Shown here one piece after another: positions 40,813 through 41,364 of a stretch of DNA of 64,000 nucleotides. This DNA is from Planctomycetota bacterium. GTDB taxonomy: Bacteria; Planctomycetota; UBA1135. The notes beneath the pieces are model-generated. The model did not search any database. It was not told the DNA's origin and worked only from the letters and a program-made list of their open reading frames with translations. A program made the position numbers and the translations under genes. Position 1 is the first letter of the stretch, and every line of letters starts with the position of its first letter. The stretch lies in assembly GCA_008501825.1 (NCBI GenBank), contig QQUA01000016.1, positions 124,001 to 188,000 of the forward strand, read 5' to 3'.

Positions 40813-41364
40813 TTAGTTTGGCGGCAACCAAGTTTCCGGATCGACTCCTAAGCCGTCGGCGATGCGATTGATGTAATTGAAATAGGCGATGACTTGGCAA
40901 CCGTCGTGGATTTGCCGATCGCTCCACCCTGCAGCGCGTAAAGCTTCCACATCTGCAGACGACATGGATTCAGGCTGACGGGTCAACTTGTCGGCATAGG
41001 CGCAAAAAGCCTTTTCGGCCTCGGACAAGGGTGCCTCCCGCCAACCCTGGCTTTCCAGGTGATCGGCCAATTCCGCTTCTCCGACCTCAACACGGAGGTC
41101 ATAGGCGTGGGCTCGAATTCAGTAATGGCAGTGGTTGGCTCGACTCACCACCACCGCCAAAGTTTCCCGCAGTCGCGGTTGCAGTTCGCTGTCCTGGTGC
41201 ATGACCGAGCGGTAAAGCCCAAGGCCGGCCCGCAACTGCTTGGCGTTTAGGCTTTGCACCCGGACGATGCCCCAAACCCGTTGCGCCCGCCGCAAGGCGT
41301 CGTCGTAGATCTTCTTCAGCAAGCCGCTAGCTTCTTGATCGGCAATTTGTCGAATCCAAGCCAT
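40813..41364 (-). CDS. AhpD/carboxymuconolactone decarboxylase-family protein read through an in-frame TGA (candidate selenoprotein, CxxU)
   Basis: ORFs 41119..41364 and 40813..41070 are in the same frame; joined protein ...VVVSRANHCHY[TGA]IRAHAYDL...FCAYADKLTR...FNYINRIADGLGVDPE is a complete AhpD-like chain of 183 residues. Confidence 0.75.
41083..41100 (-). promoter_or_regulatory. Putative bacterial SECIS hairpin
   Basis: Minus strand GACCTC-CGTGTT-GAGGTC; loop begins 24 nt after the TGA (41119-41121), G at loop position 2. Confidence 0.6.

What the first reader, a model, noticed from the sequence alone, without database searches (positions are those of the whole stretch)
40813..41364. 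Candidate selenoprotein: AhpD/CMD-like protein with CxxU active site encoded by TGA
Seen: a single in-frame TGA (41119-41121, minus strand) splits an otherwise intact family-length reading frame. It falls exactly at the second Cys of the redox motif (NHCHY-TGA-IRAH = CxxUxxxH). A perfect 6-bp hairpin GACCTC-CGTGTT-GAGGTC follows, its loop starting 24 nt after the TGA with G at loop position 2. Both agree with the published bacterial SECIS consensus (loop ~16-37 nt after UGA, G in first two loop nt). Established: AhpD-like proteins are among known bacterial selenoprotein families. The ORF caller splits it into 81- and 85-aa pieces, so automated annotation would likely miss it.
Basis: partly seen in the sequence, partly recalled or inferred. 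Interest (0 to 1): 0.82.

Follow-up and report, generated by a model that had tools for sequence, protein, structure and literature searches.

The report
Selenocysteine-containing AhpD-like peroxidase gene
A planctomycete gene that looks broken by a stop codon in fact encodes a selenium-containing antioxidant-type enzyme; the finding is correct, but this selenoprotein family has been known since 2005, so it is a new member of a known kind.

Summary
Minus-strand frame 41364-40813 encodes a 183-residue AhpD-like protein (TIGR01926, 128.8 bits, cut-off 81.8), interrupted only by TGA 41121-41119, at the second position of the CxxC motif (CHY-U). All 80 closest relatives found in public genomes (42-70% identity, at least five phyla) have TGA at exactly this codon. 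The window's own genome has tRNA-Sec(UCA), selA, selB and selD, and its selD also carries a TGA at the known CSGU position. Of 114 Planctomycetota genomes with a TGA-bearing homologue, 109 have selA, against 93 of the other 186 sampled. The hairpin is at the same place in most relatives and two of its pairs covary. Distant homologues, including solved structures, have Cys there. The family is published: 'AhpD-like (COG2128/TIGR01926), CxxU' (Sargasso Sea 2005; GOS 2008; review 2026). It most likely works as a CxxU thiol/selenol peroxidase or AhpC-reducing adaptor; that step is inferred from M. tuberculosis AhpD and PA0269. New points are minor: some relatives, mostly acidobacterial, appear to use a SECIS hairpin shifted about 8 nt upstream, and protein catalogues hold the family as half-length fragments or with a likely false Trp at the Sec position.

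The parts
40813..41364 (-). AhpD-like selenoprotein gene, 183 aa with Sec at residue 82 (TIGR01926 / CMD family)
41119..41121 (-). in-frame TGA read as selenocysteine (U82), second position of C79-H-Y-U82
   Evidence: TGA in 80 of 80 nearest relatives; Cys in distant homologues
41083..41100 (-). SECIS hairpin: 6-bp stem GACCTC/GAGGTC, loop CGTGTT; a U-G pair 41101-41082 extends it
41164..41166 (-). codon of the conserved Glu (E67) matching Glu118 of M. tuberculosis AhpD: E-x11-C-x2-U-x3-H spacing
   Evidence: sequence; conserved in homologues (where the script labels the column 'E70'); proton relay residues from PMC3141380
41128..41130 (-). codon of the resolving Cys (C79)
   Evidence: TGC or TGT in 80 of 80 relatives
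41107..41109 (-). codon of the conserved His (H86) of the proton relay

Best explanation
This is a functional selenoprotein gene of a planctomycete. Ribosomes reach UGA at codon 82; SelB carrying Sec-tRNA(UCA) binds the hairpin that starts 18 nt downstream, and selenocysteine is inserted instead of termination, giving a 183-residue AhpD-like protein (strongly supported by comparative evidence, not shown by experiment). In the active site E67, C79, Y81, U82 and H86 occupy the places of the AhpD proton relay (Glu118, Cys130, His132, Cys133, His137 in M. tuberculosis). U82 probably attacks a hydroperoxide or the disulfide of an AhpC-type peroxiredoxin, forms a selenenylsulfide with C79, and is reduced again by a dithiol donor (inferred; donor and substrate unknown).
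For: Frame and motif; family assignment TIGR01926 at 128.8 bits and homology to solved AhpD-like structures 6k40, 2oyo, 3c1l with CxxC aligned to CxxU; TGA at the same codon in 80 of 80 nearest genomic relatives from Planctomycetota, Chloroflexota, Acidobacteriota, Gemmatimonadota and Actinomycetota; no drop in purifying selection downstream of the TGA in the four closest ungapped comparisons (pN 0.19-0.24 against pS 0.71-0.84). Own genome: tRNA-Sec 74.2 bits, anticodon tca, selA 434 bits (16), selB 311 bits over one 663-aa frame (14), selD 315 bits with its own TGA in CSGU (17, 45). Phylum survey: TGA homologue in 114 genomes, 109 with selA, against 93 of the other 186 (Fisher p about 1e-18, not corrected for kinship); four of the five exceptions, MAGs with 140-410 contigs, have a tRNA-Sec over the cut-off. 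Hairpin: 81.4% of cells paired against 30-51% when slid; pair 24-37 switches C-G to U-A in 14 sequences and pair 21-40 changes on both sides in 17. Published family: PMC1088965, PMC2398784, PMC13188914.
Against: No experiment shows selenium in the protein. The hairpin alone is not thermodynamically unusual, and its 5' arm encodes the conserved D-L-R, so part of its conservation is coding constraint. Enzymatic role, substrate and electron donor are not shown, and no conserved operon partner was seen in the two relatives inspected.
Confidence: 0.96

Rival explanations
1. Pseudogene or sequencing error: the TGA is a premature stop or a miscalled TGC/TGT/TGG.
For: A standard ORF caller splits the frame.
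Against: Same TGA in 80 of 80 relatives; purifying selection on both sides; no other stop or frameshift.
Confidence: 0.01
2. UGA is read as tryptophan (genetic code 4), as many metagenome protein entries of this family suggest.
For: Most full-length database homologues of 40% identity or more show W at this position.
Against: 21 of 32 frames of at least 350 codons in the window end at TGA. The genome has the full Sec machinery. TGG never occurs there in the 80 genomic relatives. Distant homologues have Cys. The W entries come mostly from short contigs and look like gene calls under code 4.
Confidence: 0.01
3. The gene is deliberately terminated at UGA most of the time and only the 81-residue N-terminal product, or a regulated mixture, is made.
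For: UGA recoding is generally incomplete (established knowledge).
Against: The C-terminal half is under purifying selection in close relatives and is part of the conserved fold.
Confidence: 0.02
4. A genuine selenoprotein, but the enzyme is not a peroxidase: it works as a thiol/selenol disulfide adaptor or on another substrate (compatible with the recoding part of the best explanation).
For: The family is called 'peroxidase-related' only by similarity; PA0269 has weak peroxidase activity, and AhpD is an adaptor for AhpC (PMC3141380).
Against: None direct; all proton-relay positions are kept.
Confidence: 0.4

Closest known systems
AhpD-like selenoprotein family (AhpD-like 1; COG2128 / TIGR01926, CxxU), Zhang et al. 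2005 and later (PMC1088965, PMC2398784, PMC13188914)
   Same: Same protein family, same CxxU motif, Sec at the second position, bacterial SECIS with G in the apical loop.
   Different: Nothing of substance; this copy is from a planctomycete assembly and not known to be annotated.
M. tuberculosis AhpD and P. aeruginosa PA0269 (Cys enzymes)
   Same: Active-site residues E, C, (H/Y), C/U, H at the same spacing.
   Different: Sec in place of the second Cys; low overall identity; partner proteins unknown here.
AhpD-related (seleno)protein NF041238 (CFYUT)
   Same: Related CMD domain with CxxU.
   Different: Scores 50.6 bits against a cut-off of 175, so it is not that family.
CMD-like selenoprotein (PF02627), Sargasso Sea 2005; AhpD-like 2 (pfam02627), GOS 2008
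   Same: CMD Pfam domain and CxxU.
   Different: Listed as separate families from AhpD-like (COG2128) in PMC1088965, PMC2398784 and PMC13188914.

Membership tests
AhpD-like selenoprotein (TIGR01926/COG2128, CxxU) | TIGR01926 score over the curated cut-off | tested here: met
   128.8 bits, cut-off 81.8
AhpD-like selenoprotein (TIGR01926/COG2128, CxxU) | in-frame TGA at the second residue of the CxxC motif, with Sec/Cys pairing among homologues | tested here: met
   80 of 80 nearest relatives TGA; Cys in distant homologues P0054, P0057, P0058, P0076 and in 6k40, 2oyo, 3c1l
Bacterial selenoprotein gene | bacterial SECIS hairpin just downstream of UGA with G in the first two loop bases | tested here: met
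   covariation on two pairs
Bacterial selenoprotein gene | Sec machinery (selA, selB, selC, selD) in the same genome | tested here: met
Bacterial selenoprotein gene | selenium shown in the protein | not testable with these tools
   needs 75Se labelling or mass spectrometry
AhpD alkylhydroperoxidase (enzyme) | proton relay E-x11-C-x2-C/U-x3-H | tested here: met
AhpD alkylhydroperoxidase (enzyme) | peroxidase activity or AhpC reduction | not testable with these tools
   biochemistry needed
AhpD-related (seleno)protein NF041238 | score over the curated cut-off of 175 bits | tested here: not met
   50.6 bits

The most novel reading that the evidence does not exclude
Within one selenoprotein family the SECIS hairpin has moved between two overlapping registers. 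Most members, including this one, use GACCTC/GAGGTC with the loop 24 nt after UGA. Fourteen relatives (mostly Acidobacteriota) have lost it and instead can form CACGGRG/CTCCGTG or a close variant, with the loop 16 nt after UGA, so the bases that were the 5' arm become part of the 3' arm. Six sequences can form both, which would be the intermediates.
Probability: 0.4. Interest if true: 0.3.

Novelty: new member of a known kind. Interest (0 to 1): 0.2.

Why it matters
It corrects an annotation. In Planctomycetota this is a common gene (114 of 300 sampled genomes have a TGA-bearing homologue), yet gene callers cut it in two, and the large protein catalogue searched holds it mostly as half-length fragments or with a likely false Trp at the catalytic Sec. 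The nearest relatives carry Sec without exception and Cys forms were seen only at about 43% identity or below, so this looks like an old, stable Sec clade useful for studying why Sec is kept. It does not open a new kind of biology.

Tried and rejected
Rfam over the window gave nothing, and ARAGORN found no tRNA in the window; the Sec genes lie on other contigs. A search for further TGA-split genes in the window gave no second convincing case by codon usage and motif. Sequence error, pseudogene and UGA=Trp were considered and rejected. The gene surroundings of relatives L001 and L003 were read; a methylmalonyl-CoA mutase pair (recognised by eye) follows the gene in L001 but nothing alike is present in L003 or the window, so no operon is claimed. 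A structure prediction was not run because solved homologues cover the chain by sequence.

Full report
Observation. The minus-strand frame 41364-40813 is open for 183 codons apart from one TGA at 41121-41119. With the TGA read through, the product matches NCBIfam TIGR01926 'peroxidase-related enzyme' over residues 3-176 at 128.8 bits (cut-off 81.8) and Pfam CMD at 38.9 bits (cut-off 23). The TGA sits at the second position of the CxxC motif: ANHC79HYU82IRAH86, with E67 twelve residues before C79. A perfect hairpin, GACCTC-CGTGTT-GAGGTC, occupies 41100-41083. Taken alone it is not unusual: folding z-score -0.79, and 5% of all TGAs in the window have something similar. But in a scan of 172 TGAs with open flanks this site ranks first for coding-like codon usage on both sides.

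Conservation. A scan of one genome for each of 85,488 species returned 80 nearest relatives, 42-70% identical, from Planctomycetota, Chloroflexota, Acidobacteriota, Gemmatimonadota and Actinomycetota. All 80 have TGA at exactly this codon, and all 80 have Cys (TGC 57, TGT 23) at the first motif position. The pattern scan used Cys at this place in one of its six peptides, which would if anything favour Cys homologues. Non-synonymous change is low on both sides of the TGA in L001, L003, L004 and L005. For L006 the downstream comparison is unreliable, probably because an indel breaks the ungapped pairing there. More distant homologues carry Cys: P0054, P0057, P0058, P0076 and the solved proteins 6k40, 2oyo and 3c1l.

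Machinery. The window lies in a 5.7-Mb, 26-contig planctomycete assembly (kinship inferred from its nearest relatives). It has tRNA-Sec with anticodon TCA, with selD and selA next to each other on the same strand just beyond it (C22:460788-463549), and selB on C17. selD is itself interrupted by a TGA, in the frame KRLTEYAACSG-TGA-AAKIPQ, the usual Sec site of SelD. In 300 sampled Planctomycetota genomes, 114 have a homologue whose match contains TGA, and 109 of these have a strong selA, against 93 of the remaining 186 (the p value of about 1e-18 is not corrected for kinship). Four of the five exceptions have a tRNA-Sec over the Rfam cut-off, so these look like missing pieces of incomplete assemblies. 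The fifth (G188, 77% complete) stays unexplained. Of eight genomes whose best homologue has no stop, three have selA and five do not.

SECIS. Across 76 aligned downstream sequences the hairpin pairs in 81.4% of cells, against 30-51% when the partner is slid by 1-3 bases, with 33 double-sided changes against 13.6 in shuffles. The two informative pairs are the third base of the Asp codon with the first base of the following Val/Ile codon (C-G in 46, U-A in 14) and the outermost pair (C-G 27, G-C 10, U-A 5, U-G 5, G-U 2). The other pairs hardly vary because the arm encodes D-L-R; they say little. Forty-five of 81 sequences keep all six pairs, fifteen keep five, and fourteen that keep fewer than five can form another hairpin, CACGGRG/CTCCGTG or a close variant, shifted upstream so that its loop begins 16 nt after UGA. 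These fourteen are mostly Acidobacteriota (L026, L033, L043, L045, L050-L052, L054, L057, L071), plus bacterium HR10 (L024), one Gemmatimonadetes (L055) and two Planctomycetota (L027, L069). That second register has no double-sided covariation and may partly reflect the codons H-G-E-D-L-R, so it stays a hypothesis. Seven sequences form neither hairpin in these registers.

Mechanism. In M. tuberculosis AhpD the proton relay is Glu118, Cys130, His132, Cys133, His137; in PA0269 it is Glu36, Cys48, Tyr50, Cys51, His55 (PMC3141380). The residues here are E67, C79, Y81, U82, H86 with the same spacing, so U82 replaces Cys133. I infer that Sec gives a faster nucleophile that forms a selenenylsulfide with C79. 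Whether the partner is a hydroperoxide, AhpC or another disulfide is not known; PA0269, a Cys relative, has only weak peroxidase activity.

Known status. The Sargasso Sea study (PMC1088965) reported 27 AhpD-like selenoproteins (COG2128, CXXU). The GOS study (PMC2398784) counted 299 of 'AhpD-like 1' and 70 of 'AhpD-like 2'. A 2006 survey listed AhpD-like (COG2128) selenoproteins in sequenced genomes (PMC1794560). A 2026 review lists 'AhpD-like protein, TIGR01926, CxxU' (PMC13188914). The present gene is a new member of that family. NF041238 was considered and its score test failed.

Database artefact. In the 5.8-billion-protein catalogue, 74 of the 120 best hits are short pieces of fewer than 130 residues. 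Most full-length hits of 40% identity or more have W at the Sec position and lie mostly on short contigs. The likely cause is gene prediction under genetic code 4; this was not verified on their DNA.

Noticed in passing
G000:C22:461191-462114 (L098): The genome's selD is itself a selenoprotein gene: TGA in KRLTEYAACSG-TGA-AAKIPQ. It lies between selA and tRNA-Sec, all on one strand.
   Followed up: partly
P0002-P0055 (protein catalogue hits): Most full-length catalogue homologues, mainly from short metagenome contigs, show Trp at the Sec position, most likely because genes were called with code 4; others are 100-residue fragments. The family is misrepresented in protein databases.
   Followed up: partly
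L024, L026, L027, L033, L043, L045, L050, L051, L052, L054, L055, L057, L069, L071: These relatives lack the common SECIS hairpin and can form another one about 8 nt upstream (CACGGRG/CTCCGTG or a close variant).
   Followed up: partly
G105:C39, G110:C73, G137:C6, G087:C6: In some planctomycete genomes a homologue appears as two pieces (about residues 1-101 and 99-182) within one long frame (second piece listed for G105, G110 and G087), as if it had an insertion near residue 100.
   Followed up: no
Candidatus Actinomarina loci L062, L064, L065, L066, L072: Marine actinobacterial genomes of this group keep the TGA form of the gene; their downstream hairpin is weak in the register tested.
   Followed up: no
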